Shown: positions 15,561-29,881 of the stretch, one piece after another | Position numbering within the stretch: position 1 is the stretch's first letter | Layout: each line of letters begins with the position of its first letter | Source: Labilithrix sp. | GTDB lineage: Bacteria; Myxococcota; Polyangia; Polyangiales; Polyangiaceae | DNA: 32,062 nucleotides | Direction of reading: 5' to 3' | Assembly: GCA_028287035.1 (NCBI GenBank) | Contig: JAQBQL010000029.1 | Span: 1-32,062, forward strand | Position numbers and translations under genes: made by a program | Notes under the pieces: model-generated | Database searches by the model: none | What the model saw: only the letters and a program-made list of their open reading frames with translations | Told to the model about the DNA's origin: nothing

Positions 15561-15647
15561 GGAGAGCTGTCCGAGTGGCCGAAGGAGCCTGATTCGAAAT
15601 CAGGTGAGCGTGCAAGCGTTCCAAGGGTTCGAATCCCTTGCTCTCCG
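15561..15647 (+). tRNA. tRNA-Ser(CGA)
   Basis: An 87-nt class II tRNA. The acceptor stem GGAGAGC pairs with GCTCTCC, with G as discriminator base (typical of tRNA-Ser). The anticodon stem CCTGA/TCAGG encloses the loop TTCGAAA, giving anticodon CGA, which reads UCG. The long variable arm and the T-arm AAGGG-TTCGAAT-CCCTT are clear. The 3' CCA is not encoded. UCG is a frequent Ser codon in such GC-rich genomes. Confidence 0.97.
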
Positions 15648-15673
15648 CTAAATTCCCGAAGGTAGCGACCGCG

Positions 15674-17809
15674 CTAGCGGCCGAACAGGTTGAACAGCTT
15701 TCCGAGGACCTTCCCCAGCCGGGAGGGCGGAAGCTTCCACGGGTCCGGCTCGACGGCGACCGGCGCCGTGCCCGCGGCGGGGGCGACCGCGCCGAGCGCC
15801 TTCAGGATCTCGTCGAGCGAACGCGTGCGGTCGAGCCGCGTAGCGAGCGCGCGACCGGTGCGCGCGTCCCGTGCGTCGATCGCCATCACGCAGTGCTCGT
15901 CGAAGGACATGCGGAAGGTGACGCGCCCGCCGTCCGCGAGCGCGCGGTCCTCGACCACCGCCGAGCAGAGATACTCGTTGCGCGTCACGTCGGCCGACTC
16001 GCCCTGGAAGATGGGCATCGCCACCGCGCCCAGGTGGTCGGCATCGATCGTCACTTCACGCTGCGCCGGCAACCGTGCGTTCCGCGCCACGATCGGCACG
16101 AAGCGGAGGCCCGCGCTCGCGTGGCCGACGCTCATGGGAAGGATGTCGATCAGCGTGGGCGCGGTGGAGGAGCCGATCTCCTCGGCCAGCAGCGCAGCGC
16201 CGAGGGCCACCGCCTCGTCGGGGTTGATGCGCTTGCTGGGACGCCGGCCGAACAGCTCCTGCACCGCTCGCTGGACGGCCGGAATGCGCGTGCTGCCGCC
16301 GACGAGCACTACGTCCTGGATGTCGGCCGGGGTCATCGACGCGGCGCGCATCACCTCGGTGGCGATCGTGACCGTGCGCAGGATCAAGGTCGCGGTGATC
16401 TGCTCGAACCGCTCGCGCGTGATCTCCACGCTGAGCGTGCGGATGGGGTCGCGCGTGAACTCGGGAAGCTCGACGAGGTACTCGGTCTGCACGGAAAGCG
16501 CGCGCTTCGCGAGCTCGGCGGCCTCGCGGAGGCGCACGATCTGCTGCGGCGTCGGGTCGAGGTCGAGCGACTCGGCGCGCTGGAACTCGACGAGCAGGTG
16601 CGAGGCGATGAGGTCGTCGAAGTCCGACCCGCCGACGAAGTTGTCGCCGCCGGTCGCGAGCACCTCGAGCTGCTCCGCGCCGAGATCGACGACGGAGAAG
16701 TCGAACGTGCCGCCGCCGAAGTCCCACACCGCGACGCGCGAGGCTTGCGTCTGCTTGTGTCCGTAGGCGACGGCCGCGGCGGTCGGCTCGTTGACGATGC
16801 GGTGCACGACGAGCTTCGCCTCGCCGGCGGCGCGCCGGACCGCCTCGCGCTGCACCTCCGAGAAGTAGGCGGGCACGGTGATCACCGCAGCCTCGACCGG
16901 CACGCCGAGATGCGCCTCGGCGGTCGAGCGCACCTCGGCAAGGATCCGCGCGGCGATCGTGTCCATGCTGATGACCGCATCGTCGATGCGCACGCCGAAG
17001 CGCTGGTCCTCGGCCTCGGCGAGCGGATAGGCGAAGTGCTCCTGGAGCTCCGACGCGAGCTGCGCGCGGAAGGTGCGGCCGACCAGGCGCTTCGAGCCGT
17101 ACACGGTGCGCAGCGGGTGCAGGATCTGGCGGTCGGCAGCGCGCTGGCCGACGTGGAAGGTGCCGTCGGGGTTGAACATGATCATCGACGGGATCGTGTT
17201 CGAGCCGGTCCGCCCCGGGATGACCTTGGGCTTTCCGTCCACCACGTACGAAGCGCAGGTGTTCGTGGTGCCGAGGTCGATGCCGATGATGGTGCCGGTC
17301 CTTCGCACGGCGAGCGGCTCGATCTGCGGCGCGGTCTCGTCGACCTCGCCGATGTCGTCCTCGTCGGCGAGCGCGGCGTGGAGGTGCTCGCCGGGCATCG
17401 GAGGAGGCCCGCCGACCTGGCCGGGGAGCGCGGGCGGCCGCTGCTGGGCGGGCGGCGCGGGCGAGGCGAGCGCCGCGATCAGCTCGGCGTCGATGCCGAG
17501 CGCGAGGAACGCAATTCCCATCCCCTTGGCGGCGTCGACCCAGGCGACCCGCGCCAGGCCGGTCGCGATGCGTCCTCCTTCGTCGTCGAGCAGATCGAAG
17601 CGGATCTCCTCGCCGGCCTTCGCGACCGACTCGGTGGACACGCGCGCGCCCGAGCTGCTGACGTCCCTCAGCCGGTCGATCTGGATGTCGTGTCGACCGA
17701 CGATCGACCACAGAATGCGTGCCGACGAGCCGAGGCGTGCGTGGATCCGGCGATTGGTCGTTGCCAAGACCCGGCAGTGTAAACCGAGGGGGCGGGCCCC
17801 GTCAGGCAC
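15674..17809 (-). CDS. PilZ-Hsp70 fusion protein (DnaK-like with N-terminal cyclic-di-GMP-binding domain)
   Basis: A 711-residue protein in two parts. Residues about 18-115 form a PilZ domain with both ligand motifs: RIHAR (RxxxR) and DVSSSG (DxSxxG). A Pro-rich linker spans about 116-165. From 172 an Hsp70 follows: phosphate-1 loop IGIDLGTTNTC, connect-1 NEPTAAAVAYG, phosphate-2 WDFGGGTFDFSVVD, adenosine loop VLVGGSTRIPAVQ. A shortened substrate-binding region comes next (SVGHASAGLRF onward). The usual helical lid is mostly missing; the protein ends in a basic amphipathic tail. ATPase residues look intact. The idea that cyclic-di-GMP gates a chaperone is inference. Start: GTG 17809 as given, or TTG 17767 (697 residues), which lies just after a promoter-like element and keeps both PilZ motifs. 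Confidence 0.88.
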   Translation of the reverse strand: MPDGARPLGLHCRVLATTNRRIHARLGSSARILWSIVGRHDIQIDRLRDVSSSGARVSTESVAKAGEEIRFDLLDDEGGRIATGLARVAWVDAAKGMGIAFLALGIDAELIAALASPAPPAQQRPPALPGQVGGPPPMPGEHLHAALADEDDIGEVDETAPQIEPLAVRRTGTIIGIDLGTTNTCASYVVDGKPKVIPGRTGSNTIPSMIMFNPDGTFHVGQRAADRQILHPLRTVYGSKRLVGRTFRAQLASELQEHFAYPLAEAEDQRFGVRIDDAVISMDTIAARILAEVRSTAEAHLGVPVEAAVITVPAYFSEVQREAVRRAAGEAKLVVHRIVNEPTAAAVAYGHKQTQASRVAVWDFGGGTFDFSVVDLGAEQLEVLATGGDNFVGGSDFDDLIASHLLVEFQRAESLDLDPTPQQIVRLREAAELAKRALSVQTEYLVELPEFTRDPIRTLSVEITRERFEQITATLILRTVTIATEVMRAASMTPADIQDVVLVGGSTRIPAVQRAVQELFGRRPSKRINPDEAVALGAALLAEEIGSSTAPTLIDILPMSVGHASAGLRFVPIVARNARLPAQREVTIDADHLGAVAMPIFQGESADVTRNEYLCSAVVEDRALADGGRVTFRMSFDEHCVMAIDARDARTGRALATRLDRTRSLDEILKALGAVAPAAGTAPVAVEPDPWKLPPSRLGKVLGKLFNLFGR
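17776..17805 (-). promoter_or_regulatory. Candidate promoter of the PilZ-Hsp70 gene
   Basis: On the minus strand, CTGACG (17805-17800), an 18-bp spacer and TACACT (17781-17776). The TTG at 17767 follows 8 bases after the -10. If real, the GTG at 17809 cannot be the start of this transcript and translation would begin at the TTG, leaderless. Confidence 0.35.
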
Positions 17810-17886
17810 CTTCGAATCGCGCTCCGCCGGGGGATCCGGTCTCCCGCGCGCTATGCTGAGGGTCCTCGCTGAACCGGGAGCCCGTC

Positions 17887-18078
17887 ATGAACATCAAGAA
17901 CGCTCGTCTCGTGTGGAAGAAGATGCTGCCCTTTGCCTTCGGCGCGGTCGTGCTCGGCACCGCCGGAACGGCGCTCGCGCATCGCTACCTCGGCAGCGAG
18001 TGCTGCGCGCAGGGGGCCTCGTGCTGCCATCCCGGCGCGGCCTGCTGCAACGGCGCGCACAAGACAGCCCAGCGCTGA
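17887..18078 (+). CDS. Small membrane or secreted protein with a CC heptad repeat
   Basis: A 63-residue protein. Residues 1-32 are a signal peptide or membrane anchor (basic MNIKNARLVWKK, then hydrophobic to ALA-HRY). The rest holds three Cys pairs at 39-40, 46-47 and 53-54, exactly seven residues apart (CCAQGAS, CCHPGAA, CCNGAHK), plus His48 and His58. This pattern suggests metal binding or disulphide linkage outside the cytoplasm; I know no named family. GGGAG 7 bases before ATG 17887 supports the start, and TATGCT at 17852-17857 may be a -10. The cupin gene follows after 11 bases on the same strand, so the two probably form an operon. Confidence 0.7.
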   Translation: MNIKNARLVWKKMLPFAFGAVVLGTAGTALAHRYLGSECCAQGASCCHPGAACCNGAHKTAQR

Positions 18079-18089
18079 GCGCCCCCGCC

Positions 18090-18611
18090 ATGACCTCGCA
18101 GGCGGCGCGCCCGCCCTTCATCGTGAGCACGGCCGACGTGCCCGAGACCACTCACCGCTACCCCGAGCGCCCGGACGAGCCGATGGCCTCGGGTCGGGCG
18201 ATCGGGCGCGCCGCCGGCCTGAAGAACGTCGGCCTCCACGTCGTGCGCGTGCAGCCCGGCCAGCGCACGTCGTTCCCGCACGCCGAGTCGCACGAGGAGG
18301 AGTTCGCGTTCGTGCTCGAGGGCTCGCTCGACGCGTGGCTCGACGGCGTGCTCCACCCGATCGCCGCGGGCGACCTCGTGGCGCTTCCGGCGGGGACCGG
18401 CATCTGTCACACGTTCATCAACAACGGCGACCGCGAGGCGCGCCTGCTGGTCGGCGGCGACAGCGACAAGGAGGCGAACCGCATCTTCTACCCGAAGAAC
18501 CTGGAGGTCCGGTCACGCCGCAAGGACTGGTGGAGCGACGTCCCCATCGGACCGCAGGGTCCGCACGACGGCCTCCCGGACGCGGTGCGTGCGGCCGCGA
18601 AGAAGCCCTGA
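18090..18611 (+). CDS. Cupin domain protein
   Basis: A 173-residue single-domain cupin, close to the COG3837 type. Motif 1 includes FPHAESHEEEFAFVLEGSLDAW with His and Glu metal ligands; motif 2 includes PAGTGICHTFINNGD with the second His. It is probably a cytoplasmic metal-binding beta barrel acting as a small-molecule enzyme or binding protein; the substrate is unknown. ATG 18090 was chosen because the homologous part starts right after it; the open frame upstream runs through the neighbouring genes and is not coding. It lies 11 bases after the CC-repeat gene. No clear Shine-Dalgarno sequence precedes it, consistent with coupling. Confidence 0.88.
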   Translation: MTSQAARPPFIVSTADVPETTHRYPERPDEPMASGRAIGRAAGLKNVGLHVVRVQPGQRTSFPHAESHEEEFAFVLEGSLDAWLDGVLHPIAAGDLVALPAGTGICHTFINNGDREARLLVGGDSDKEANRIFYPKNLEVRSRRKDWWSDVPIGPQGPHDGLPDAVRAAAKKP

Positions 18612-18628
18612 CCGACCGCCCCGGTCAG
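18608..18628. terminator. Bidirectional hairpin between convergent stops
   Basis: CTGACCG, loop ACCGCCC, CGGTCAG: a perfect 7-bp stem. The stop codons of the two convergent genes lie inside the two arms (TGA 18609-18611 on +, TCA 18625-18627 for -). No T-run on either side, so a strong intrinsic terminator is not proven. Confidence 0.42.
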
Positions 18629-19302
18629 TCGGCGCGCAGGCACAGGATCGCGCTCTCCTCCTGGCACGAGTGCGCGTTGTCGTACGTCCACTTCTTGGTG
18701 AGCTGGCCGCTCTGGCCTGAGGTGCCCCTCACGCTGCTCGTGTCCGCCGTCCAGTCGTTGCAGGTGACGGACCCCGCGGAGGCGTCCCCGCCGGGGATCG
18801 GCGTGCCCGTCCAGAACCCCGAGCTGAAGAGCAGCCCTCCGTCGCCGGTGTGATCGACGCCGCTGCGCGGGGCGTCGGTGAGGGACGCCCGGTCGGGGAA
18901 GACCAGCCGTCCATCGTACGTTTCGATCCACGGCCCGTTGCCCTTCACGCGGGAGGGGAAGGCGTGCGACGGGTCGTTGTCGGAGAGCCACGCCTGGTAC
19001 GTGCCCGGATAGCGGTTCGCGTCCGCCTCCGCCTGGCAGTACCCGTCCGCGGTCGTGATCCCGCCGACGTCCTTTCCGTTCCACCTGCCGGTGGTGAAGA
19101 AGATGTAATAGGGCGACGGCGGCGCCGCGTCGGCGGTGTCCTCCGACGCGTCCACGGGCTCCGCGTCGTGCGCCAGCGTGGCGTCGGGATCGTCCGTCCC
19201 GTGGCCGATCGCCGGGTCGTCACCCGTGCATGCGGCGATGACCAGGCAGGAAAACGCGCCCGCGCAAGCGGCGAGCGTGGTGACAGCAGCAAAGCGCATC
19301 AT
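18625..19302 (-). CDS. Lipoprotein with DUF1554-like (lectin/endostatin-like) domain, copy A
   Basis: A 225-residue predicted lipoprotein. The signal ends in IAAC, followed by TGDD and an Asp/Ala-rich linker to about residue 60. The globular domain opens with YYIFFTTGRWNGKDVGG and continues ADGYCQAEADA, TYQAWLSDNDPS, WIETYDGRLVFPD, ending in conserved Cys (CQEESAILCLRAD). This order matches the DUF1554-type domain known from Leptospira and myxobacteria, related in fold to C-type lectin/endostatin modules. A surface or carbohydrate-binding role is inferred only. ATG 19302 follows the neighbour's stop by 9 bases; the neighbour is a paralogue with the same layout. The stop lies in a hairpin shared with the convergent cupin gene. 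Confidence 0.78.
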   Translation of the reverse strand: MMRFAAVTTLAACAGAFSCLVIAACTGDDPAIGHGTDDPDATLAHDAEPVDASEDTADAAPPSPYYIFFTTGRWNGKDVGGITTADGYCQAEADANRYPGTYQAWLSDNDPSHAFPSRVKGNGPWIETYDGRLVFPDRASLTDAPRSGVDHTGDGGLLFSSGFWTGTPIPGGDASAGSVTCNDWTADTSSVRGTSGQSGQLTKKWTYDNAHSCQEESAILCLRAD

Positions 19303-19311
19303 GGTCCGGAC

Positions 19312-20013
19312 CTACTTCTGGCGGAGATGGGGTTCGCCGCGGATACACACGAGGTGGCGCGGCTGGTCGCAGGTGTCGCGACCGAGGTACGTCCAGTCGA
19401 ACCGGGTGCCCTCGGGGTCTCCGTAGACGCCGAGCAGGCCGGCGTCGCCGCTCGTCCAGCTGGCGCAGTCGAGGCTCTCGAACACGTCGGGGTTCTTGCT
19501 CGCATCCGGGAACGCCTGGCCGGTCCAGAAGTGGGTTCCGTGCGGCACTCCCTGGCCCTTGGCCGTGTAGAGCAGGGGCACGCGCGGCGCGGTCGGCAGT
19601 TTTCCGTAGTCGTTGAAGATCACCGCGTCGTCACGGCGGCGCCACGGGCCTCCGTCCGACTCGATGCGGCCCATGAAGGACGCCTGGTCGCCGTTCAACC
19701 AGGCGACGTGTCGTCCGCTGAGCCCGGCGGCTTCTGCCTCCGCCTGGCACTTGCCGTCGGCGCCCGTCACGCCGCCGACCTCCTGGCCGTTCCACATGCC
19801 CTCGCTGACGAAGATGTAGAAGGCTGCGGACGCGTCCGCCGCGTCGAGCACGTCGACGGCGGCGTCCGTCGGGACCGTCGCGTCGGCCTCGTCGGCGGGT
19901 GGCGCCGTTGCCGGATCGTCACCCGTACAGGCCGTCAGGACGCCGAGCGCTCCGACGCACAGCGAGGACACGAGCACGAGCAGCCGGGCGGCGGGGCGGT
20001 GCATGGGCCGCAT
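19312..20013 (-). CDS. Lipoprotein with DUF1554-like domain, copy B
   Basis: A 233-residue paralogue of the next gene downstream. Both have a lipobox ending AC followed by TGDDPA, an acidic Ala/Asp linker, and matching blocks: FYIFVSEGMWNGQEVGG, ADGKCQAEAEA, HVAWLNGDQASF, GPWRRRDDAVIFND, HFWTGQAF, and a Cys-rich end (DTCDQPRHLVCIRG). The core is conserved while the linkers have diverged, so the pair is an old tandem duplication or is under diversifying pressure. The start is ATG 20013; ATG 20004 is equally possible and keeps the same signal peptide. It is divergent from the lipoprotein gene at 20166, with a 152-base shared upstream region. Confidence 0.77.
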   Translation of the reverse strand: MRPMHRPAARLLVLVSSLCVGALGVLTACTGDDPATAPPADEADATVPTDAAVDVLDAADASAAFYIFVSEGMWNGQEVGGVTGADGKCQAEAEAAGLSGRHVAWLNGDQASFMGRIESDGGPWRRRDDAVIFNDYGKLPTAPRVPLLYTAKGQGVPHGTHFWTGQAFPDASKNPDVFESLDCASWTSGDAGLLGVYGDPEGTRFDWTYLGRDTCDQPRHLVCIRGEPHLRQK

Positions 20014-20119
20014 GGTAGGCGATCTCGAGGCCGCCCCGGACGATCGTCGAGCGATCCGGATCGCGATGTCACGGGCGTCGGCCTGCTCGGCGGTCCGCTC
20101 ACCCGTGAATGACTGCGTT

Positions 20120-20142
20120 GCCGCCACACCCACGTGTGCGGC
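20120..20142. promoter_or_regulatory. Inverted repeat in the divergent intergenic region
   Basis: GCCGCCACAC, loop CCAC, GTGTGCGGC: a 9-bp stem with one bulged C, 23 bases before ATG 20166 and 106 bases from the start of the divergent gene. It could be a protein-binding site or a 5' leader hairpin of the + strand lipoprotein gene. Confidence 0.35.
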
Positions 20143-20165
20143 ACATCGCTTGCTCGAGCGCGGTC

Positions 20166-20687
20166 ATGAGCTTGCGCCGTGTCATCAGCCTGGGTGTCTT
20201 GTCCTTCGTCGTCGCTGCTGCCGTCGCCTGCAGCGATAGCGAGACCGCGGGCTCCACCTCGCCCACCGGCGATGGTGGCGCCTGCACGGCGGCCCTCGAC
20301 ACGTTCGTCTGCCCGGCTCCCGCCCCCGGCACTTTCGAGTCCACCTGGTGTTGTCCGCCCTCCTTCGACGCGACCGCCGAGGCGCTGCCCGCATGCAACC
20401 TGGGCGAACGACAATCGTACTCGGCGTGTCCCGGTGCGAGGGTGCTCACGCGCTCGTTCGGCACGCACGCGATCCAGTGCTTCTACTCGGTCACCACCGA
20501 TGCGCTCGTCGCCGCCCAGAAGGAGGACGACGTCGAGGACCTCTGCGGAGGGACGTCCTCGGTCGCGACCAGCGGCAACGCACCGGCCGCGGGCTGCACG
20601 CCGGACTCGCTGACCCAGGTGACGTGTCCCCGCACGCCGGACGGCGGCTCGGACGGCGGCGCGGACGCGAGCGCGGACGGCGGCTGA
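20166..20687 (+). CDS. Cys-rich lipoprotein, unknown function
   Basis: A 173-residue predicted lipoprotein. MSLRRV, a hydrophobic stretch and the lipobox AVAC are followed by a Ser/Gly linker. The Cys-rich mature domain has about ten Cys (for example FVCPAP, WCCPPSF, LPACN, IQCFYS, DLCGG, AGCTP, VTCPR). The tail is Asp/Gly/Ala-rich. The regular Cys suggest several disulphides in an extracytoplasmic domain. I recognise no family, though this lipoprotein style is common in myxobacteria. ATG 20166 was chosen over an upstream ATG at 20109, which would put 19 non-signal residues before the signal peptide. It is convergent with the next gene, 6 bases between stops. Confidence 0.74.
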   Translation: MSLRRVISLGVLSFVVAAAVACSDSETAGSTSPTGDGGACTAALDTFVCPAPAPGTFESTWCCPPSFDATAEALPACNLGERQSYSACPGARVLTRSFGTHAIQCFYSVTTDALVAAQKEDDVEDLCGGTSSVATSGNAPAAGCTPDSLTQVTCPRTPDGGSDGGADASADGG

Positions 20688-20693
20688 GCGGCG

Positions 20694-21344
20694 TCACTCC
20701 CGGGCGAGCGCCCGCGCCATGTCGCGGAGCGCGACGACCACCGCGCTCGGGAGCACCGCGTGCTCGTCGAGACCAGGGGCCTGCCAGGCGACGCTGAGGA
20801 TTCCCTTCGTGATCGACAGCTCGATGAGGATGCTGCGGATCGAGCAGAGCGCCGAAGCGGCGTCCGGTCCGAACGCGGCGCGCGCGAGGTCCCCGTCGAG
20901 ATTGCCGGAGATCGCGAAGCGCTCCGTCAGCTCGCCGTCGAGCCCCGGTTGCCGCGAGAGGCCGAGGGCCGCGCCCCACGTCCGGAGATCGAAGACCCGG
21001 CGCGGCGTCATGCGGAGCCTCACCTCCTCGGGCAGCGGAACGAGCGCCCGCGCGACCCCGTACGTGTACGCACGCTGGTCGTAGAAGCGGTTCGGCGACC
21101 ACGCCACCGCCGAGACGGAGAGCGGTACCTCGTCGATCGTGGCGAGCACCCCGTCGAGCTGCCACGAGTCGACGCGCGCGCGGAAGCTCTCCAGCCGCGC
21201 GGCGAGCAGCGGCCGCTCGTCGATGACGAGGGCCGCGAGATTCGCGATCGGCGCCCTCAGCCGGGCGGGCGTCGCATACATCACGGGTGCGGGCCGCGGC
21301 GCCCGCCCCACGCGGTAGGCATGCTCGATGCTCAAGGCGCTCAC
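20694..21344 (-). CDS. Unknown protein, last gene of the haem-protein operon
   Basis: A 216-residue protein with no signal peptide and no clear membrane segment. The middle is a mixed alpha/beta region (WQLDGVLATIDEVPLSVSAVAWS; ERFAISGNLDGDLARAAFG; SILIELSITKGILSVAW), somewhat like DUF3137-type domains; that is a weak comparison. The start is GTG 21344, which overlaps the preceding stop by 4 bases (GTGA). An ATG at 21281 is less likely because it would break this coupling. It is cytoplasmic by prediction and the sixth gene of the run beginning at 29881. No function can be assigned. Confidence 0.62.
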   Translation of the reverse strand: MSALSIEHAYRVGRAPRPAPVMYATPARLRAPIANLAALVIDERPLLAARLESFRARVDSWQLDGVLATIDEVPLSVSAVAWSPNRFYDQRAYTYGVARALVPLPEEVRLRMTPRRVFDLRTWGAALGLSRQPGLDGELTERFAISGNLDGDLARAAFGPDAASALCSIRSILIELSITKGILSVAWQAPGLDEHAVLPSAVVVALRDMARALARE

Positions 21345-22096
21345 ATCTTCTGGTGGAAGGGGATCTCGACGCAGGCGCCCACCGTGACGACGCCGAAGGA
21401 AGCACGGAAGCACAGCTCCGGATCGTCGTCGTGGTCCTTGTCGCGGACGCCGATGCTGGCCTCGGCGCCCTCGCTGATGCTGAGCCCGACGGTGAGCTGG
21501 TTCGCCCCCTTCTCGAAGGTCTTCTCGCCCGCCACCGCGGTCGCCAGGAGCCCGCCGTTGAGGCCGAGGCTGCCATCCGAGTTGTGGAATCCGGCATGGG
21601 CCGTGGCGGTCGCCGCCTCCACGGTCGTCGAGCCGCCGCGGTTTCCGAACCGAAGCCCCGTCGCTTGTGCCTCGTTCTGTTCGCCGACCTGGACCGAGAC
21701 GCTGCCCGCTTCGATCTCGAGGCCACTCCTGGGGTCGAGCCCCTTCACCACCGCGACCCCGACGTAGACGCTGTTCGTGTCCTTCGCGTATCCGGCTGCG
21801 GCGTACGGGCTCTCGCTCGCGTCGCGTGCCGAGGTGCGCGCCGCGCTGTTGCCGAGCGACGGAGGCGCGGCGGGCGCGGCAGGCGGCGGTGCGGGAGGAC
21901 CGAACGCCTCGTGAGGCAGGGCCTCGTCCCAGTCACGGTCGAGCGAGCACGAGAGCCTCGGCTTCTCGCTCTGGTTCGGGGTCTTGGCGCTGGCGGTCTG
22001 TGCGCCCGGCGTCTTCGCAGCCTCCGCGGCCTCGGCCTCGTGATCGTCCTCCGGCCTGCGACACGCTGCGTCCGGCCCGGAACGAATGACTTCCAT
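21341..22096 (-). CDS. Unknown protein with Ala/Pro-rich N-terminus and beta-rich C-terminus
   Basis: A 251-residue protein. The first 100 residues are low-complexity (AEAAEAAKTPGAQ; PPAPPPAAPAAPP) with no signal peptide. From about 105 the protein is beta-rich and Gly/Ala-rich, with alternating patterns (VYVGVAVVKGLD; ATAHAGFHNSDGSLGLNGGL; QLTVGLSISEGAEASIGV) that look like repeated hairpins of a beta-helix or porin-like sheet. One acidic run, DKDHDDDP, could bind Ca2+. I recognise no family. ATG 22096 starts 33 bases after the CLC stop; a GC-rich palindrome (CCCTCCGGGGAGGG, 22111-22124) lies in that gap. Its stop overlaps the next start. Confidence 0.62.
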   Translation of the reverse strand: MEVIRSGPDAACRRPEDDHEAEAAEAAKTPGAQTASAKTPNQSEKPRLSCSLDRDWDEALPHEAFGPPAPPPAAPAAPPSLGNSAARTSARDASESPYAAAGYAKDTNSVYVGVAVVKGLDPRSGLEIEAGSVSVQVGEQNEAQATGLRFGNRGGSTTVEAATATAHAGFHNSDGSLGLNGGLLATAVAGEKTFEKGANQLTVGLSISEGAEASIGVRDKDHDDDPELCFRASFGVVTVGACVEIPFHQKM

Positions 22097-22129
22097 GGTC
22101 CGCTCGTCGGCCCTCCGGGGAGGGTGTTG

Positions 22130-23359
22130 CTACCTTTCCTTGCCCCACTTCCGGTGGCGCACGCGCTGCGAGGGATAGATGCTCCGGTCGCCCGTCAGCA
22201 CGTAGGCGATCGCGCTCACCACGAGGACGTGCGGGAGGGTCGCGCCGCCGGCGAGCTCCACGACCATGATCGAGAGGGCCACCGGCGTGTTCGCGGCCGC
22301 GCCGAACACCGCGCCGAGGCCGAGCGCCGCGCCGAGATCGAGCGGCAGCCCGAGCACGCGAGCCATGAGGTTCCCGAGCGTCGCGCCCACGAAGAAGAGC
22401 GGCGTGACCTCGCCGCCGAGGAACCCGGAGCCGAGCGTGATCGCGGTGAAGACGAGCTTCGCGGCGAACGCGAACCACGGTAGCGACGGATCGCTGAACG
22501 ACCGCAGGATCATCGGCACGCCGAGGCCGAGGTAGTCGCTCGTGCCGACGATCTTCCAAAGCACCACGACCGCGCAACCGCCGACGAACATCCGCAGCGG
22601 CAGCCGCCTGATGCGCCCGGCGAGCAGCTTCTTCGAGCGATGCGTCAGCTCGACGAAGGCCACGGTGGCGAGCGCCATCGCCGCGCCCATCACGCAGAGC
22701 TTCCCGAGGACGGGCGCCGTGAAGTCGACGTGCGCGACCTGGGGATACGTCGCGTGCACCACGCCGAGGCGCAAGGTGACGAAGTTGCCGACGACGGACG
22801 CGGCGAGCGCGGGGACGAGCGCCTCGTACTCCATGACGCCGGTGGTGACGACCTCGAGGCCGAACAAGGCGCCCGCGATCGGGGTCCCGAACACCGATCC
22901 GAACCCGCCCGCCATGCCCGCGGCGAGCAGCTGGCGCCGCGTCTCCGTCGTGACCTTCAGCGAATGGGCGAGGGCATCGGCGAGGCTCGCGCCCATCTGC
23001 ACCGCGGTTCCCTCGCGGCCGGCGCTGCCGCCGAAGACGTGTGTGAGCACGGTCCCCACGAGGACCATCGGCGCCATCCGGAGCGGCAGCTGCGGCGCGT
23101 CCTCGTGGATCGTGTCGAGCACGAGGTTGTTGCCGCCCTTGATCGCCTCGCCCCACCGCTCGTAGATGGCGCCGATCACGAGGCCGGCCAGCGGCAGCGC
23201 GTACACGACGAGCTCGTGTCCCTCGCGGAACCTCGTGGCGCGCTCGAGCAGCAGCAGGAAGATCGCCGAGGCGATCCCGGCGGCGGCGCCGACCGCCGCT
23301 CCGAGCGCCACCCCGGCGCCCAGGGTCCGCGCGACCGCCGCCGCTCGGCGCGTCACCAT
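22130..23359 (-). CDS. CLC family antiporter, fluoride/proton (CLC-F) type
   Basis: A 409-residue polytopic inner-membrane protein of the CLC fold. The gating-Glu motif reads GGSAGREGTAVQMG (Glu116) and the first filter motif KGGNNLVLD (75-81). A later filter loop is GFLGGEVTPLFF. CLC chloride transporters normally carry GREGP and a Ser-containing GSGIP. GREG followed by T or V, with Asn or Met at the Ser position, is the mark of the CLC-F branch, which exports fluoride against protons. I therefore call fluoride export, from motif memory. ATG 23359 overlaps the cytochrome-like gene's stop (ATGA), leaving no room for a fluoride riboswitch directly before it. No CBS domains follow the membrane part. 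Confidence 0.86.
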   Translation of the reverse strand: MVTRRAAAVARTLGAGVALGAAVGAAAGIASAIFLLLLERATRFREGHELVVYALPLAGLVIGAIYERWGEAIKGGNNLVLDTIHEDAPQLPLRMAPMVLVGTVLTHVFGGSAGREGTAVQMGASLADALAHSLKVTTETRRQLLAAGMAGGFGSVFGTPIAGALFGLEVVTTGVMEYEALVPALAASVVGNFVTLRLGVVHATYPQVAHVDFTAPVLGKLCVMGAAMALATVAFVELTHRSKKLLAGRIRRLPLRMFVGGCAVVVLWKIVGTSDYLGLGVPMILRSFSDPSLPWFAFAAKLVFTAITLGSGFLGGEVTPLFFVGATLGNLMARVLGLPLDLGAALGLGAVFGAAANTPVALSIMVVELAGGATLPHVLVVSAIAYVLTGDRSIYPSQRVRHRKWGKER

Positions 23360-26300
23360 CAGGGCGTCGCGGGAGGACCTTCGATCGGTCCGCGCTCGCC
23401 AGGCGCCTTCACCAGACCGAACGGCGGCTTGCCGCGCGCCACCGTCGCCGAGGCCTGCGTGACGAAGTCCGGCTTCAGCGCGACGTCCGTGGCCTTGCCG
23501 CTGATCGAGCCGTGACACTGGCCGCAGAGCGAATCGAAGAACTGCGCGCGGAAGGACTGGTGCACGCTCTCGCCGGGCCCGAACACCATCGCCTCGCGCT
23601 GGTAGCGGGGAAGCGCGCGCTCGCGCGAGAGCTTCGTGTCGTCGAGCTTGAGCACCACCGGGAGGCCGCCGGGGATCGCGAACCGTGCCGAGCCATCGGT
23701 CTCGAGCGCCACCGCGCCGAGCGTCCGGCGCCGCACGTAGACGCGCCCGAAGGCATCACTCACCACGTTCGCGCCGCCCTTGTCGAACGAGTCGACCTCG
23801 AGCGGCGGCGGCATGTCCTCGTACACGGTGAACGTGCTCATGTCCGGGTCGAGGAGCCGGCCCGTCGGCGTGTTCTGGAACAGCAAGGAGGACAGGACGC
23901 GCATGTCGAGGACGGTCACGTCCGCCTCGCTCTTGCTCTCGTTGGTCGACGTGAAGCCGTTCGGCTCGTCGACGGCGGACCGGAACACCGCGCGCGCGAA
24001 CCGCTGGAACACCGGCGCCGCGTCGACCTCGGCGAAGCCCGCCTCGCCGAGCAGCTTCGTCTTCGCGCCGGTGACCGGCGACATCACGTAGAGGTCGTAG
24101 TCGCCGCCGAACGCTGCGGCATCGGCGGCGGTCCCGAAGCTGACGACGAGCTGTCCGTTGGGCAGCGCGGCGGGCGAACGATAGAGCCCGCTCGTCGGCT
24201 GGCCGGGCGTCGCATTCGCGCCCGCGTCCGGGAAGCGCAGCGAGTGCAGGAAGAACTGCGGGTCGAGCGCCTGCGCCTGCGCGGGATCGAGCACCCCGGG
24301 ATCGACCGGATAGTCGGCGGCGTTCGTGCTGCGGAAGTCGACCCCGATCGACCGGTTGAACACCGCGAGCGCGCCGCCGCCCTGGGGGGTTGCCGGCTGG
24401 CGGAAGATGGTCGCGAAGTCCTTGTCGGCGAGCTCCACGACCTCGGCGGCCTCGGGGTAGCCGATGGACCCGCGCTGCGCGTAGAGCGGGTGGTAGTCGC
24501 CGCCGTCGAGATTGATGCGGCGGAGCGCGAGCTGGTAGAAATTCGGGGCGCGCTTCTCGCTCGTGTAGATGATGCGGCCGTCGCTCATGAAGCTCGGCGC
24601 ACGCTCCATGTTGAGCAGGTACGTGAGCTGACGGACGCGGTGGGCCGCGCCGTTCGCGGGATCCGGCTCCCACACGTAGAGGTTCGAGTTCGCCTTCGTC
24701 GGGTCGGCGGGCGTCCGCTGCGGGCCCGTGTAGTCGAACGCCTCGTTCCGCACGTTGCCGCGCGTCGATGCGAACACGATGCGCGGCGGTCCGCCCTCGG
24801 GCGGCGCGTAGGTCGGATCGAAGTCGTGGACGAGGAGGCCGTTCTGCGACGCGGGGTGCGCGCCGATCTCGGCGTTCTTCGCGCAGGCGGTGCCGTCGGC
24901 GTTCATCTCGTAGATCGCGAGCGGCTCGGCCGCGCTCGAGCGTGCCGCGAACGCGATCTTCGTCCCGTCCCACGACACCTGCGGCCGGCGGATGTCCGCC
25001 GAGGACGGATCCAGGCCACAGCCAGCGGTGAGCGACGTCTCGGCGCCCGAGGTCGCGACCGCGAGACCGGTCTGCGTGACCGGGACGCGGCGGAGGTCCG
25101 CGCCGGGCGCGTACACGTCGAAGTCCTGCGGGCGACCGACCGACCCGACGGGGCGGCGCACGTAGACGACCGAGGAGAGCGCGGCCAGCTTGAAGACCTC
25201 GCGCTCACGGCGCTGCCACTCGGCGACCACGCAGTAGCCCGGGATCTTGTCGAGCTCGCCCTGGTCGTAGTCGTACTTCGCGTCGGCGCACGCCTTGGCG
25301 CTGGCGGTGGTGCCCGGGAAGTCCTCGAAGAGGGGACCGCCGCGATGCACGATGCCGGAGGGTTTGTCGCATCCAGCGACGGTGCAGACCTCGGGCCGGT
25401 AGAGGTTCTTCCGCACGATGCGGCTGGCGTTCGGGTCGTCGCTCTCGACCGAGAGCTGCGCGAGCGACAGCTCGTAGTTCTTCCGCGTGGCCGAGAGCGA
25501 GAAGCTGCCGCCCGAGCCGCCGCGCAGGCGGAAGTCGTGGAACATCGAGGCCGAGTGGCACTGCACCATCATGCAGCCCTTCTTCACGAGGACCGGCTGC
25601 ACCTTCTGCGAGAAGAACGCGAAGCCGGGGTCGCTGCTGTCGACCACGGGCGGGCCGTGCGCCTTCGCCCAGTCCGTCAGCGCCGCGTAGCCGCTGTCGC
25701 TCGGCGACGTGAAGACGACGCCGCCCTCGTGGTACGCGCCGCCCTGCGCCGGCGCGAGCGGCCTTCGCAGGAGCTCGCTCTGCTCGGCGGTCTGCGCGAG
25801 ATACTCCTCGGCGACCAGGTAGTTCCACCGGATCTGCTCCGGTGACTCACCGCATGTAAAGTACATCGAGTTGGCGAGGGTGCCGTGGCAGTTGCCGGCG
25901 GCGCACGCCGCGTTGCCCTGCTTGCCGGTGAGCACCGGGTTCACCTGGTCGCGGAACTGCGCGAAGTCACCCCGCGGCGGATCCTTCGTGAGGTCGAAGC
26001 CAGCGCGCCCCGGCACGAACGGGTTGCAGGGGAGGCGCTCGACCACGTTCGGCGGCACGCCGGTGTTGTTCTCGGTGGCGCCGTTCTGGATCCAGCGCCG
26101 GAGCGTGGTGTACGCGCTGCCCGACGCGTCGAGGATGCTGCCGCCCGCGTGCTTGATGTCGGTCGTGATCGACACCTTCTTGCCGTCGTAGGTCTGCACC
26201 TCGACCTGGAAGGGCTCGATGTTCTTCACGAGCATCGCCGGCTGCCCGTACGGCCCGTAGTCGAGGAGGAGATCGCGCCGCTTGGCCACGCCGCCGAACG

Positions 26301-26514
26301 TCGCGACGTCGAGGTTGCCGAGCGCGTTGCCGCGCGCGTCCTCCACGTGACAGCCGGCGCCGGTGTTGGTCCGGACGCACGACGTCGACAGGATCGGGCT
26401 GATGGTGCGCTCGAAGTACGTCGACGAGGCGGCGTCCTTCGTCGTGCAGCTCGCGGGCGCGAGCGCGATCACCGCCGCGCAGGCGGCGACGATGCCGGGA
26501 AGAAAGCGATTCAC
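23359..26514 (-). CDS. Multihaem c-type cytochrome-like protein with TolB-like beta-propeller
   Basis: A 1051-residue exported protein. The signal peptide may end in a lipobox (APASC, atypical). The N-terminal 400 residues hold repeated cytochrome-like modules of the form F..(K/Q)V.PVL followed by a haem motif: CVRTNTGAGCH (46-56, unusual spacing), CAAGNCH (205-211) and CMMVQCH (315-321), both CX4CH; CTVAGCD (378-384) lacks the His. From about 440 to 900 there are WD40/TolB-like propeller repeats (VSWDGTKIAFAARS, RIVFASTRGN, MSDGRIIYTSEK). A canonical CGQCH lies near the end (997-1001). It is probably an envelope electron-transfer protein; only the last motif is a standard haem c site. It starts at GTG 26514, 83 bases after the HEAT gene, and its stop overlaps the CLC start. 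Confidence 0.85.
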   Translation of the reverse strand: MNRFLPGIVAACAAVIALAPASCTTKDAASSTYFERTISPILSTSCVRTNTGAGCHVEDARGNALGNLDVATFGGVAKRRDLLLDYGPYGQPAMLVKNIEPFQVEVQTYDGKKVSITTDIKHAGGSILDASGSAYTTLRRWIQNGATENNTGVPPNVVERLPCNPFVPGRAGFDLTKDPPRGDFAQFRDQVNPVLTGKQGNAACAAGNCHGTLANSMYFTCGESPEQIRWNYLVAEEYLAQTAEQSELLRRPLAPAQGGAYHEGGVVFTSPSDSGYAALTDWAKAHGPPVVDSSDPGFAFFSQKVQPVLVKKGCMMVQCHSASMFHDFRLRGGSGGSFSLSATRKNYELSLAQLSVESDDPNASRIVRKNLYRPEVCTVAGCDKPSGIVHRGGPLFEDFPGTTASAKACADAKYDYDQGELDKIPGYCVVAEWQRREREVFKLAALSSVVYVRRPVGSVGRPQDFDVYAPGADLRRVPVTQTGLAVATSGAETSLTAGCGLDPSSADIRRPQVSWDGTKIAFAARSSAAEPLAIYEMNADGTACAKNAEIGAHPASQNGLLVHDFDPTYAPPEGGPPRIVFASTRGNVRNEAFDYTGPQRTPADPTKANSNLYVWEPDPANGAAHRVRQLTYLLNMERAPSFMSDGRIIYTSEKRAPNFYQLALRRINLDGGDYHPLYAQRGSIGYPEAAEVVELADKDFATIFRQPATPQGGGALAVFNRSIGVDFRSTNAADYPVDPGVLDPAQAQALDPQFFLHSLRFPDAGANATPGQPTSGLYRSPAALPNGQLVVSFGTAADAAAFGGDYDLYVMSPVTGAKTKLLGEAGFAEVDAAPVFQRFARAVFRSAVDEPNGFTSTNESKSEADVTVLDMRVLSSLLFQNTPTGRLLDPDMSTFTVYEDMPPPLEVDSFDKGGANVVSDAFGRVYVRRRTLGAVALETDGSARFAIPGGLPVVLKLDDTKLSRERALPRYQREAMVFGPGESVHQSFRAQFFDSLCGQCHGSISGKATDVALKPDFVTQASATVARGKPPFGLVKAPGERGPIEGPPATP

Positions 26515-26597
26515 GACGGAGATCCTATCGCGCTCTCGTCTTCCTGGCGCGCGCTCTCGTCGCGTTGCTGCCTCGCGGGAAGACGCGGAATCAGGTC

Positions 26598-27524
26598 CTA
26601 CAGTCTGCGCAGCGCGATGGCCGCCTGGTCACGGACGAGCCCGTTCGGATCGTTCGCGAGCGCCTCGAGCGTGGCCTTCGCCCGCACGTCGCGGATCTGG
26701 CCGAGCGCGTGCGCGGCGGACTCGCGCACGCTCGCGTCGCCGTCCTTGGTCATCGCGATGAGGCCGTCGACCGAGTCCTTCGCGCGCATCGCGCCGAGGA
26801 GCTCAGCCGAGCGCCGCCGCACCAGCGGGTCGACGTCGCCCGAGAGCTTCGCGACCGCGGGCACGTCCGTGAACGTGTTGACGCGGCTTGCCGAGCCGAG
26901 CGCCGCGAGCTTCACCCGTGCGTCGGCATCACCGAGGGCCAGGCTGAGCGCGCCCGAGCCGTCGTCGTTGAGGCGCCCGAGGGCGGCGGCCGCGGCGGCG
27001 CGGACCGTCGGGTCCCCGTCCTTCGCGATCGCCTGCTTGCACGCGTCGACGCCCGGCTTCGCGAGGAACTCGCCGAGCGCGTTGGCCGCATAGGCGCGGC
27101 GCCGCGGGTTCGGATCGCTCTGCAGCGTGTTCAGCGTGCGCTCGTACACCTCGCCGGGGCCGAAGACGCCGAACATGCGGCGACGCAGCCACCACGCGGC
27201 GATCTCGCGGGTGCGCGAGTTCGCGTCGTAGAGGAGCGGCTCGACGGACGGGATGCAGTCGAGACACTCGACGCGCTCACCGTGCTCGAGGGTCTCCCAG
27301 ATGGCCATCATCGAGCCCGAGGCCGACACGCTCTTGATGCGGTCGCCGGTCGAGAGGAACTCGATCTGGTCGGGCGGGATGTTGCCGTACATGGCCTGGG
27401 TGCCGCCGATGTTCTCCGTGATGCTGCCGGCGGTCGCCGACCTTCCGGAGAGCAGCGAGGAGCACGCGATGGCCGCGGCTGCGAGGAAACCGAGACGGAC
27501 GCCGAGCTTGCGATGGTTGCGCAT
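26598..27524 (-). CDS. Secreted HEAT-repeat protein
   Basis: A 308-residue protein with a Sec signal peptide (hydrophobic LGFLAAAAIACSSLLSG; cleavage probably near ATAGS, although AIACSS could be read as a lipobox). From about residue 85 it is a run of HEAT/PBS-lyase-type helical repeats, each with the pattern D(P/A)xxRxxAAxALG (for example DPTVRAAAAAALGRL, DASVRESAAHALGQI, DPNGLVRDQAAIALRRL). Such repeats form a curved protein-binding scaffold, so it may hold the two haem proteins of the operon together. A CLDC pair near residue 88 lacks the His for haem. ATG 27524 has GGAG 7 bases upstream and lies 14 bases after the preceding gene's stop. Confidence 0.88.
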   Translation of the reverse strand: MRNHRKLGVRLGFLAAAAIACSSLLSGRSATAGSITENIGGTQAMYGNIPPDQIEFLSTGDRIKSVSASGSMMAIWETLEHGERVECLDCIPSVEPLLYDANSRTREIAAWWLRRRMFGVFGPGEVYERTLNTLQSDPNPRRRAYAANALGEFLAKPGVDACKQAIAKDGDPTVRAAAAAALGRLNDDGSGALSLALGDADARVKLAALGSASRVNTFTDVPAVAKLSGDVDPLVRRRSAELLGAMRAKDSVDGLIAMTKDGDASVRESAAHALGQIRDVRAKATLEALANDPNGLVRDQAAIALRRL

Positions 27525-27538
27525 GGTCTTCTCCGCTC

Positions 27539-29881
27539 TCAGTATTTCTGACCGGCGGCCACGGGGTCGCTGGCGAAGGGCACGAAGCCGGTGTTCTGAC
27601 GTGCGTAGAACTGCCCGCCGACGTCGATCGACCGGATGAGGGTCGCGCGCTCGTCGTCGGTGAGGGTGACGCCCTTGTCCTCGGGGTGCATCGCCGGCGT
27701 GCCGTACGCGAAGGTGCCGTCGGCGGCCTTCACGTTGAGCTTCTTGATCAGCACCGACTCACGCGCGTTGTTGACGATGGCCCACTTCGGCGGGATGTCG
27801 CCGGTCGGCTTCGCGTTGCCCATGCCCATCTCCATGACGCCCGGGAAGAAGAGCGACACGTACGAAGCGGGGTAGGTGGCGAGCCGGCGGTCGTAGACGA
27901 CGGTGATCGGGCGGTCCGACAGGTCGAGGTACGGGATCGCGGGGAACTGCTGAGCGAGGCCCGTCTGCGGGTTGGTCGCGGTGACCGTGTAGCTCTTGCC
28001 CGCGAACGGATCGTTCGGGCCGCCCGAGTGACACGAGGCGCACTTCGCGTTGAGCAGGTCCTGGACGACGATCTTCGGCTTCGCGTCGGGGTACGTGGCG
28101 CGGTCCAGCGCCCAGGGCATCTCGATGCGGTCCGGGATGGCGACCTTCCAGTAGGCCTGCGCCTGCGCCTGCTCGGCGACCGTCGGGTTCGAGCCGAGGC
28201 GCGGGGCGCCGGCGCCGGAGCGCTGCTCGTGACAGCCCACGCAGCGGCGGTCCTCGCCGGGCATGCCCTGGATCCAGAGCCGCTGGCTCCGGATCGACAT
28301 GCCGTACTTGTCGATGGGCTGGAGGTGCACCGGGATGTACGGCGGGATGTCGGCGAGCCAGCTTCCGTCGGCGTAGACCGGGGCCTCGCCGAGGATCGCG
28401 GCGCCCTCGTCCATCGTGAGGCCGAACATCGTGACGCCCTTCGCGGCCTCGCTCGAGAAGCCCTCGATGACGCGGACCTTCACCGCGTCGTGGAGCGCCG
28501 CGCTCAGCGGGACGCCGGTGTCGCCGTAGTTGGCGCCCTTCACCGTCTCGTTGAGGCTCGTCTTCGTGATGTCGACCGAGCCGATGCGGACCGGCGCCGA
28601 GTTGTCCTGGTTCTTGCTGACGATGTCGCCGATGACCGGCGGCTCGCTGCGCGGCGCGACGGCGACCGCGTTGAGCGACCACGTCCCGCGGTCGTTGTAG
28701 ACGAGCTGGTTCTTCTTCGTGACGGGGTCGAAGATGAAGATGCCGAACTCGGGCGGCGACACCGACTGCTCGGACAGATCGTTGACGGGACCGTCGGCCC
28801 ACGAGACGAGGATGCGCCCGTCGGGCAGCATCGAGGGCTCGCGGTAGCGGCCCACCGGCGACGGGCCGTTGCCGGTCGGCACGTCGGGCGTCAGGATCTC
28901 GAACTTCGCGTTCTCCTCGTCGAGGCACGCGTGCCCGGTCTGGTCGGCGGCGGGATCGAGGCACGTGGCATCGGCGGCGTTGCGCGCGTCGATCTTCACG
29001 AGGGCGCCGGCGTGGATGGTGCGGTTTCGCTCGGTGGCGATGCCGATCATCACGTTCGGCTCGATCTCGCGGATGCTGAAGAGCGAGTTCGACGGCTTGC
29101 CGTGCTGGCCGGCGACCGCGAGCATCTGCGTGCCGTCGGGGTTCGCCGCGAACAGCTTCACGTCGTTCACGCCGCCGAGGTGCTCCCAGCGCGAGTAGCC
29201 GATCTTGCCGTCGTGGCGCATCCACGGCGCGACGGTGTGCGAGAGGTTCTGCGAGGCGAGGCGCCGGTCGGCATCGCCTCCGTCCACCGAGATGGTCGCG
29301 AGCTGCGTGACCACGCGGCCGTGCTCGTACTCGTCGGCGCGGGTGCCCATCGCCGTGTACATCTCGTTCGTCACGAACGCGATGCGGCCGCCCGGCAGGT
29401 AGATCGGGTTGATGTCGTCGCGGTCGCCGCCGGTCTTCGCGTGGATCTCGAACTTGCCGTCGGGGCCCTCGGCGAGCTGCGCCGTGTAGAGGTGGTACCG
29501 GTCCGACGCGTCGCGCTTCATCGAGAAGACGACCTGCTTGCCGTCGAACGACACGTCGGCGCCGTTGAAGTCGGCGGACGGATAGTCCGCGGTGATGTTC
29601 TTGAGCACGCCGTCGGGCCGCGGCGGCGAGAGCAGCATGAGCGCGCCGCCCGGGACGAACCGCTCGTAGTCGAGCACCTGCCCGTTGCCGCCCGCGACGT
29701 CGACCGCGACCCCCTCGGGCCCCGTCGTCGTGTGCTGCCGCTTGATGAAGAGCACCGAGCTGACCCCCACGCCGGAGTCGGTCTTCGCCTCGTCGCTACA
29801 GGCGACGAGCTGCGACGCCAGAGGCGCGGCAGCGGCGGCGAGCACCAACGTGAACGCGGTGAGGCGGTTGAGGTGTCTCAT
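27539..29881 (-). CDS. Diheme lipoprotein of the hydrazine synthase alpha-subunit (HzsA)-related family
   Basis: A 780-residue lipoprotein (lipobox LVAC, Cys28). Residues about 80-410 form a propeller-like region with DVSFDGKQVVFSMKRD, GGRIAFVTNE, RHDGKIGYSRWEHLGG, RNRTIHAGALVKID and MLPDGRILVSWADG. These are the marks of the HZS_alpha-type family, which is widespread beyond anammox bacteria. Two canonical haem c sites follow: RRCVGCHEQR (547-551) and KCASCHSGG (614-618). Conserved His residues are candidates for distal ligands or a metal site. The family's activity outside anammox is unknown; no beta or gamma hydrazine synthase genes lie here, so I do not infer hydrazine synthesis. ATG 29881 is the first gene of the run down to 20694. 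No Shine-Dalgarno sequence is visible. Confidence 0.87.
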   Translation of the reverse strand: MRHLNRLTAFTLVLAAAAAPLASQLVACSDEAKTDSGVGVSSVLFIKRQHTTTGPEGVAVDVAGGNGQVLDYERFVPGGALMLLSPPRPDGVLKNITADYPSADFNGADVSFDGKQVVFSMKRDASDRYHLYTAQLAEGPDGKFEIHAKTGGDRDDINPIYLPGGRIAFVTNEMYTAMGTRADEYEHGRVVTQLATISVDGGDADRRLASQNLSHTVAPWMRHDGKIGYSRWEHLGGVNDVKLFAANPDGTQMLAVAGQHGKPSNSLFSIREIEPNVMIGIATERNRTIHAGALVKIDARNAADATCLDPAADQTGHACLDEENAKFEILTPDVPTGNGPSPVGRYREPSMLPDGRILVSWADGPVNDLSEQSVSPPEFGIFIFDPVTKKNQLVYNDRGTWSLNAVAVAPRSEPPVIGDIVSKNQDNSAPVRIGSVDITKTSLNETVKGANYGDTGVPLSAALHDAVKVRVIEGFSSEAAKGVTMFGLTMDEGAAILGEAPVYADGSWLADIPPYIPVHLQPIDKYGMSIRSQRLWIQGMPGEDRRCVGCHEQRSGAGAPRLGSNPTVAEQAQAQAYWKVAIPDRIEMPWALDRATYPDAKPKIVVQDLLNAKCASCHSGGPNDPFAGKSYTVTATNPQTGLAQQFPAIPYLDLSDRPITVVYDRRLATYPASYVSLFFPGVMEMGMGNAKPTGDIPPKWAIVNNARESVLIKKLNVKAADGTFAYGTPAMHPEDKGVTLTDDERATLIRSIDVGGQFYARQNTGFVPFASDPVAAGQKY

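What the first reader, a model, noticed from the sequence alone, without database searches (positions are those of the whole stretch)
20694..29881. Six-gene envelope haem-protein operon around an HzsA-related diheme lipoprotein
Seen: six minus-strand genes with gaps of 14, 83 and 33 bases and two 4-base overlaps, encoding an HZS_alpha-family diheme lipoprotein, a secreted HEAT-repeat protein, a 1051-residue propeller with up to four haem motifs, a CLC-F antiporter and two unrecognised proteins. Known: HzsA in anammox bacteria is one subunit of a three-subunit enzyme; relatives elsewhere have no assigned function. Inference: an extracytoplasmic redox complex, with HEAT repeats as scaffold and the long cytochrome-like protein as electron partner. 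The last two proteins could be assembly or regulatory factors. This is the best candidate here for an undescribed system.
Basis: partly seen in the sequence, partly recalled or inferred. Interest (0 to 1): 0.78.

Follow-up and report, generated by a model that had tools for sequence, protein, structure and literature searches.

The report
Conserved three-gene haem-protein cluster in myxobacteria

Summary
The six minus-strand genes are there, but the conserved unit has three: HzsA-like di-haem lipoprotein, secreted HEAT protein, and the 1051-residue "propeller". In 55 myxobacterial-type loci, HEAT follows the HzsA-like gene in 54 and gene 3 follows in 45; 7 of the 10 misses are contig ends. Of 377 Myxococcota genomes, 42 have the HzsA-like gene at E<=1e-30, 41 of these have gene 3, none of the other 335 does. 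Gene 3's protein is itself HzsA-like: its last 600 residues match protein 1 and hydrazine synthase alpha, behind three cytochrome domains with invariant CX4-8CH and HxGG. HEAT carries an invariant CxxC. CLC-F, U1 and U2 were joined by a rearrangement: in 7 of 9 close relatives homology stops within 10 bases of gene 3's stop codon, and in 8 of 9 a block lying at 11-14 kb in the window follows. Not hydrazine synthase: beta and gamma reach their cut-offs in 0 of 44 carrier genomes; the haem-ligand tyrosine is absent in 67 of 67. Best reading: an envelope-anchored complex with about six haems, substrate unknown.

The parts
27539..29881 (-). HzsA-like di-haem lipoprotein (780 aa)
29798..29881 (-). 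Signal peptide and lipobox ending at Cys28 (LVAC)
   Evidence: read from the sequence, no predictor run; Cys28 in 117 of 120 relatives, gap in 3
28226..28417 (-). HZS_alpha middle domain, residues 489-552
28229..28243 (-). Haem motif CVGCH 547-551 (position of haem alpha-I), followed by ExR instead of the hydrazine-synthase tyrosine
   Evidence: Cys, Cys, His in 67 of 67 diverse sequences; Tyr at His+4 in 0 of 67
28028..28042 (-). Haem motif CASCH 614-618 (position of haem alpha-II)
   Evidence: 67 of 67
27686..27688 (-). His732, candidate distal ligand of the second haem (inferred)
   Evidence: His in 65, gap in 2, of 67
26598..27524 (-). HEAT-repeat protein with signal-peptide-like start (308 aa)
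   Evidence: PF13646 96.3 bits; adjacent in 54 of 55 loci
27255..27266 (-). Invariant CxxC (Cys87, Cys90) of the HEAT protein
   Evidence: 62 of 62 sequences, 29-79% identical to the window's
23359..26514 (-). Gene 3: second HzsA-like protein with N-terminal tri-haem part (1051 aa)
25195..26418 (-). Three tandem cytochrome domains (about residues 33-440, read from the sequence), each CXnCH followed by HxGG
   Evidence: three HxGG in 120 of 120; cysteines and HxGG histidines in 53 of 53 diverse sequences, motif His in 53 except 52 for the first motif
26347..26379 (-). CX8CH motif 46-56
25885..25905 (-). CX4CH motif 204-210
25555..25575 (-). CX4CH motif 314-320
23485..25185 (-). HzsA-like propeller plus middle domain, residues 444-1010
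23512..23526 (-). CX2CH motif 997-1001, at the position of haem alpha-I
   Evidence: alignment; 53 of 53
22130..23359 (-). CLC-F antiporter gene: neighbour, not part of the conserved unit
   Evidence: 6d0j E 5.2e-69; in none of 59 loci
21341..22096 (-). U1, unknown protein: neighbour, not part of the unit
   Evidence: in none of 59 loci; 10 proteins in the database at E 1e-3, itself included
20694..21344 (-). U2, unknown protein (216 aa from the GTG at 21344): neighbour
   Evidence: in none of 59 loci; 1 weak match in 18 relative genomes
11082..23363 (.). Segment whose two ends lie close together in relatives, so it is inverted and/or enlarged here
   Evidence: 8 of 9 relatives align to the window's 11.1-14.4 kb block 0.06-4.2 kb after the end of gene 3; L012 shows no such match

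Best explanation
Genes 1-3 encode one envelope redox complex of myxobacteria. Two different HzsA-fold haem lipoproteins work as a pair: the 780-residue one (propeller, alpha-I-type haem, alpha-II-type haem) and the 1051-residue one (three bis-His c-haem domains, propeller, alpha-I-type haem). The secreted HEAT solenoid, with its invariant CxxC, holds or matures them. The three N-terminal haems are a wire between periplasmic carriers and the alpha-I-type haem sites, where a small substrate is oxidised or reduced. It is not hydrazine synthase. Shown: gene unit, co-occurrence, homology and fold, conserved motifs. Inferred: secretion and anchoring, haem ligands, physical complex, electron path, catalysis.
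For: Adjacency in 54/55 and 45/55 loci. 41 of 42 genomes with gene 1 have gene 3 and 0 of 335 others do, at E<=1e-30; in 32 they lie on one contig and strand, 0.99-1.36 kb apart, room for HEAT. Order kept at about 36% identity (L095/L106) and in L107 and L110. Distance matrices of genes 1 and 3 correlate at 0.95 over 42 loci; against an upstream housekeeping gene 0.84 (20 loci) and 0.88 (15 loci). Homology of the two proteins and fold. Invariant haem cysteines and HxGG histidines. HEAT CxxC and WW 62/62.
Against: No complex was shown: no multimer prediction or experiment was possible. In two genomes (L019/G001, L023/G002) gene 3 is not beside genes 1-2 but elsewhere, in two copies each, and in G003 it is on another contig. 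In 10 of the 41 genomes gene 3 has a second long copy on another contig, so it also occurs without gene 1 beside it. Co-occurrence is confounded by shared descent, which I did not correct for. The models are mediocre (mean pLDDT 64.4 and 54.2; the tri-haem part mostly under 50; TM-scores to 5c2v 0.46/0.47 and 0.32/0.42, rmsd 10.4 and 8.1 in Foldseek). Axial ligands and export signals are read from sequence only. No substrate clue from neighbours.
Confidence: 0.55

Rival explanations
1. The trio is a pure electron conduit of the envelope (about six haems in a row) without its own catalytic site; the HzsA-like domains are structural haem carriers.
For: The hydrazine-synthase tyrosine ligand is missing (0 of 67); three bis-His-like domains; lipoprotein signals read from the sequence.
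Against: The middle-domain signature (DGS...PGE...CxxCH, with ExR in gene 1) is kept, and Tyr185, His234, His519 and Arg554 are invariant in 67 of 67, more than a wire seems to need.
Confidence: 0.25
2. Conserved neighbours inherited together, acting in separate places.
For: The named carriers look related (Polyangiaceae, Labilithrix, Sandaracinus and the like); two genomes have gene 3 unlinked and 10 of 41 have a second gene-3 copy.
Against: Nothing else near the trio is kept as well: apart from shadow ORFs over the trio, no other ORF cluster is in more than 21 of 55 loci; presence and absence at E<=1e-30 match in 376 of 377 genomes.
Confidence: 0.12
3. Six-gene operon as first read, with CLC-F, U1 and U2 as working parts.
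For: One-base overlap TGATG and short gaps in this window; no terminator-like site between genes 3 and 4; a weak U1-like ORF 680 bases downstream of a distant gene-3 copy in G002.
Against: CLC, U1 and U2 in none of 59 loci; CLC orthologues elsewhere; in 8 of 9 close relatives another block follows gene 3, directly in L001 and L046; a whole-genome search of G002 with U1 found nothing at 1e-3.
Confidence: 0.05
4. A real hydrazine synthase or another N-N bond former.
For: Gene 1 has the HZS_alpha domain and whole-chain fold; weak gamma-profile matches exist in 42 of 44 carrier genomes (best 60.1 bits) while 0 of 14 control genomes ring.
Against: NCBIfam hydrazine_alpha 39.9 bits against cut-off 800; beta and gamma over the cut-off in 0 of 44 carrier genomes; Tyr ligand absent in 67 of 67.
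Confidence: 0.03

Closest known systems
Hydrazine synthase alpha subunit HzsA (PDB 5c2v), Ca. Kuenenia
   Same: Propeller and middle domain with CxxCH, and for gene 1 a C-terminal cytochrome domain; best fold match of both proteins
   Different: No Tyr591-type ligand, no beta or gamma over cut-off in carrier genomes, extra tri-haem part in protein 3, HEAT partner
HZS-like clades I-IV of Planctomycetota, Desulfobacterota and others (PMC12758564)
   Same: Alpha-like gene in a conserved cluster; no tyrosine ligand (clades I-III, as that paper reports)
   Different: There the partner is a fused beta-gamma protein, in clades I-III with an FG-GAP protein gene nearby; here it is a second alpha-like protein plus HEAT. 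Words beginning with Myxococc, Polyangi, Labilithrix or HEAT do not occur in that paper's main text
HZS_alpha-domain proteins of Verrucomicrobia and Planctomycetota (L056-L059)
   Same: DGS...PGE...CxGCH signature (PGE altered in some); two such genes side by side in L056 and L057
   Different: Neither of a pair is clearly gene-3-like (gene-3 profile at most 35 bits); no HEAT neighbour found by the window's HEAT query at 1e-4

Membership tests
Hydrazine synthase (HzsABC) | HZS_alpha domain and whole-chain fold | tested here: met
Hydrazine synthase (HzsABC) | Score above NCBIfam equivalog cut-off for subunit alpha | tested here: not met
   39.9 bits against 800
Hydrazine synthase (HzsABC) | Beta and gamma subunits in the genome | tested here: not met
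   0 of 44 carrier genomes over cut-off for each; given were 35 of the 42 carriers plus 9 genomes of other loci; the window's own genome is not held
Hydrazine synthase (HzsABC) | Proximal tyrosine four residues after the alpha-I CxxCH histidine | tested here: not met
   0 of 67 sequences; feature from PMC12607021 and PMC12758564
Hydrazine synthase (HzsABC) | Zinc site with Cys303 | tested here: inconclusive
   Cys307 and Cys319 of the window protein are each kept in 21 of 67; equivalence to Cys303 not established
Hydrazine synthase (HzsABC) | Hydrazine production | not testable with these tools
   needs enzyme
HZS_alpha superfamily, protein of gene 3 | PF18582 above gathering score | tested here: inconclusive
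   18.1 bits, cut-off 26.6, and 17.3-26.5 bits in five relatives; but profile and fold matches are strong
CLC-type fluoride/proton antiporter (gene 4) | Closest solved relatives are CLC-F rather than chloride CLC | tested here: met
   6d0j E 5.2e-69; best chloride CLC 6.4e-8

The most novel reading that the evidence does not exclude
The trio is an undescribed haem enzyme of the bacterial envelope in which two different HzsA-fold subunits, each with an alpha-I-type haem, form a heteromer fed by a built-in tri-haem wire and held by a redox-active CxxC HEAT protein; it would be the first functional system assigned to the large HZS-alpha superfamily outside anammox bacteria.
Probability: 0.35. Interest if true: 0.75.

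Novelty: new variant of a known kind. Interest (0 to 1): 0.56.

Why it matters
As far as the papers I read go, the HZS-alpha fold has a confirmed function only in anammox hydrazine synthase, and a 2025 study asked how that enzyme arose (PMC12758564). A trio kept together in many non-anammox bacteria, some with long contigs (G176, G354), gives a system in which to ask what HzsA-fold haem proteins do when not making hydrazine, and how an alpha-like subunit acquires partners.

Tried and rejected
Rejected: the six-gene operon, after the neighbourhood and breakpoint analyses. Rejected: a hydrazine synthase. The beta profile gave weak hits in 38 of 44 carrier genomes (best 79.3 bits, cut-off 560) and rings in 3 of 14 controls (E. 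coli, B. subtilis, M. acetivorans), so I read these as generic propellers. The gamma profile gave weak hits in 42 of 44 (best 60.1 bits, cut-off 625) and rings in 0 of 14 controls; I take these as cytochrome-peroxidase-like relatives (inference, not tested).

Led nowhere: promoter scan (0 sites, 0.3 expected) and terminator scan (3 sites, 2.7 expected); U1/U2 against PHROGs (none). PF26549, listed as a precomputed domain for many gene-3 relatives, did not appear in the Pfam copy used here, so I do not know what it is. U1 has ten database proteins including itself, those with a name called hypothetical. Literature searches listed nothing that is evidently on this trio; for hydrazine synthase with Myxococc (19 papers, 15 listed) and with Polyangi (5) I saw only the listings. 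Of PMC12758564 I read the abstract, sections 7 and 8 and passages; of PMC12607021 and PMC10732223 passages only.

The VIA lists are filled by the propeller domain, so absence of other folds there means nothing. The genome searches scored only the two best first-look candidates per Myxococcota genome, so further weak copies may be missed. In one search three distances took the far piece of a split match and two the near end of one; one search gives the corrected values.
Full report
What is there. The window codes on the minus strand for a 780-residue HzsA-like protein (gene 1, 27539-29881), a HEAT protein (gene 2, 26598-27524), a 1051-residue protein (gene 3, 23359-26514), a CLC-F antiporter (22130-23359), U1 (21341-22096) and U2 (20694-21344). 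The stated gaps are right; one of the two stated 4-base overlaps is a one-base overlap if the ATG is used. No whole genome is held for the window; the protein database lists gene 1 on a contig of 32062 bases, so the window seems to be a whole contig. The nearest named relatives are Labilithrix and other Myxococcales or Polyangiaceae metagenome records.

Three genes, not six. One scan of genome contigs gave 59 loci: 55 with 46-82% identity to gene 1, titled mostly Myxococcales, Polyangiaceae, Labilithrix, Sandaracinus and the like, a few only Deltaproteobacteria or Proteobacteria; and 4 from Planctomycetota or Verrucomicrobia (24-26%). In the 55, HEAT follows in 54 (the other contig ends inside gene 1) and gene 3, whole or cut by a contig end, follows in 45. 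Of the 10 without gene 3, seven have 0-388 bases left after HEAT or gene 1, L039 has 1.7 kb, and L019 and L023 have 9 kb. The genomes of L019 and L023 carry two full-length gene-3 copies each elsewhere, and that of L039 one on another contig. Apart from shadow ORFs over the trio, no other cluster of ORFs is in more than 21 of the 55 loci (clusters in 7 or more loci listed).

Genome-wide. In 377 Myxococcota genomes drawn evenly by the tool, with the two best candidates per genome scored, 62 have some gene-1 match at E<=1e-3; 42 have one at E<=1e-30, and 41 of these 42 have gene 3 at E<=1e-30 (not G004); none of the other 335 has. In 32, gene 3 lies downstream on the same contig and strand, 0.99-1.36 kb on, room for HEAT. 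Five of the 377 (G001-G005) came in through my own choice of loci without gene 3 nearby; all five are among the ten not adjacent. Without them the numbers are 37, 37 and 32, and the remaining five (G336, G348, G363, G129, G093) have gene 1 close to a contig end: contig lengths for G363 and G093, for G336 from L026/L074, and at most 907 bases left in G129 and none in G348 by coordinates. Against strict pairing: 10 of the 41 have a second long gene-3 copy on another contig. The order is kept in divergent loci too (L106, 36% identical by L095; L107, L110; L108 up to its contig end). Shared descent explains part of this; distance matrices of genes 1 and 3 correlate at 0.95 (42 loci), of gene 1 and HEAT 0.88 (50), HEAT and gene 3 0.91 (43), against 0.84, 0.79 and 0.88 with an upstream gene that I take for a purine nucleoside phosphorylase (20, 18 and 15 loci); on 15 common loci 0.97, 0.94, 0.94 against 0.86, 0.83, 0.88.

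Why genes 4-6 are next to it. CLC, U1 and U2 occur in none of the 59 loci at tblastn 1e-4. CLC orthologues (56-72% identical) exist in 7 of 17 myxobacterial genomes searched (21 searched in all), but none lies within the fetched stretches around the trio. Nine close relatives were compared with the window by blastn. In 7 of 9 the alignment over gene 3 ends within 10 bases of its stop (window 23354-23369; L052 and L049 end at 23433 and 23448). The next alignment is to window 11.08-14.4 kb, turned round relative to the trio: about 60 and 130 bases on in L001 and L046, 1.1-1.5 kb on in L014, L052, L003 and L049, 4.0-4.2 kb on in L002 and L006; L012 shows none. That block holds a glutamate-5-kinase-like gene (proB; named by eye, not searched). 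So the segment from about 11.09 to 23.36 kb was inverted and/or enlarged in this lineage, with one end at the gene-3 stop. A chimeric contig is not excluded. Against: in G002 a U1-like ORF (25 bits) lies 680 bases downstream of a distant gene-3 copy, though a whole-genome search of G002 with U1 gave nothing at 1e-3.

Haem sites. In front of this part gene 3 has three units of the form F/Y...P-I/V-L...C-X(4-8)-C-H...H-x-G-G...W (read from the sequence). The cysteines and HxGG histidines are invariant in 120 of 120 near relatives and 53 of 53 diverse sequences (35-77% identity; first-motif His 52 of 53). I read HxGG as the distal ligand of bis-His haems (inference). Gene 1 keeps both CxxCH in 67 of 67 and His732 in 65 with 2 gaps (33-83% identity). 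The diverse sets (66 and 52 sequences plus the window) come from loci fetched by different calls, identical stretches removed, short ones dropped; some genes may be present twice with different ends. HEAT keeps Cys87, Cys90, Trp111 and Trp112 in 62 of 62.

Not hydrazine synthase. Hydrazine synthase has a zinc-binding His587 in the alpha-I motif, Tyr591 as proximal ligand and beta and gamma partners (PMC12607021, PMC12758564; passages and sections read). Here Tyr is at that position in 0 of 67, the equivalog score is 39.9 of 800, and beta and gamma reach their cut-offs in 0 of 44 carrier genomes (35 of the 42 plus 9 others), with weak matches in 38 and 42 of them. PMC10732223 already suggested that hydrazine-synthase-like proteins may form a wide family with other substrates; PMC12758564 describes alpha with beta-gamma pairs in other phyla. 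Neither describes this trio in what I read.

Mechanism. Most likely an envelope-anchored redox complex of two HzsA-fold proteins plus HEAT, with about six haems. Likelihoods, my judgement: functional unit 0.9, physical complex 0.65, catalytic rather than only conducting 0.55. The substrate is open; small nitrogen or oxygen species are the first to test because the anammox alpha-I haem is the only characterised precedent known to me.

Noticed in passing
L056:5301-11653 and L057:7032-12486: Two HzsA-like haem genes lie side by side also in a planctomycete and a verrucomicrobial contig, so pairing of alpha-like proteins may be wider than the trio.
   Followed up: partly
Verrucomicrobia genomes G740, G757: The first look lists 89 and 91 candidate places for the HzsA-like profile (only 7 scored in each), hinting at a large expansion of the HZS_alpha superfamily.
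   Followed up: no
L102-L105 (G001, G002): Further tetra-haem proteins distantly related to gene 3 (144-167 bits) without a recognised gene-1 neighbour, some next to other haem proteins.
   Followed up: no
10 genomes, e.g. G356:C296, G248:C28, G115:C1, G103:C1: A second long gene-3 copy on a contig other than the trio's; its neighbours were looked at only in G001 and G002.
   Followed up: partly
window 18625-19302 and 19312-20133 (-): Two neighbouring proteins with weak DUF1554 matches, apparently a duplicated pair.
   Followed up: no
window 15674-17809 (-): Hsp70/DnaK-like protein with an extra N-terminal part of about 180 residues that looks like PilZ (read from the sequence and recalled, not searched).
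   Followed up: no
window 15561-15648 (+): tRNA-Ser(cga) inside the segment that is rearranged relative to relatives.
   Followed up: no
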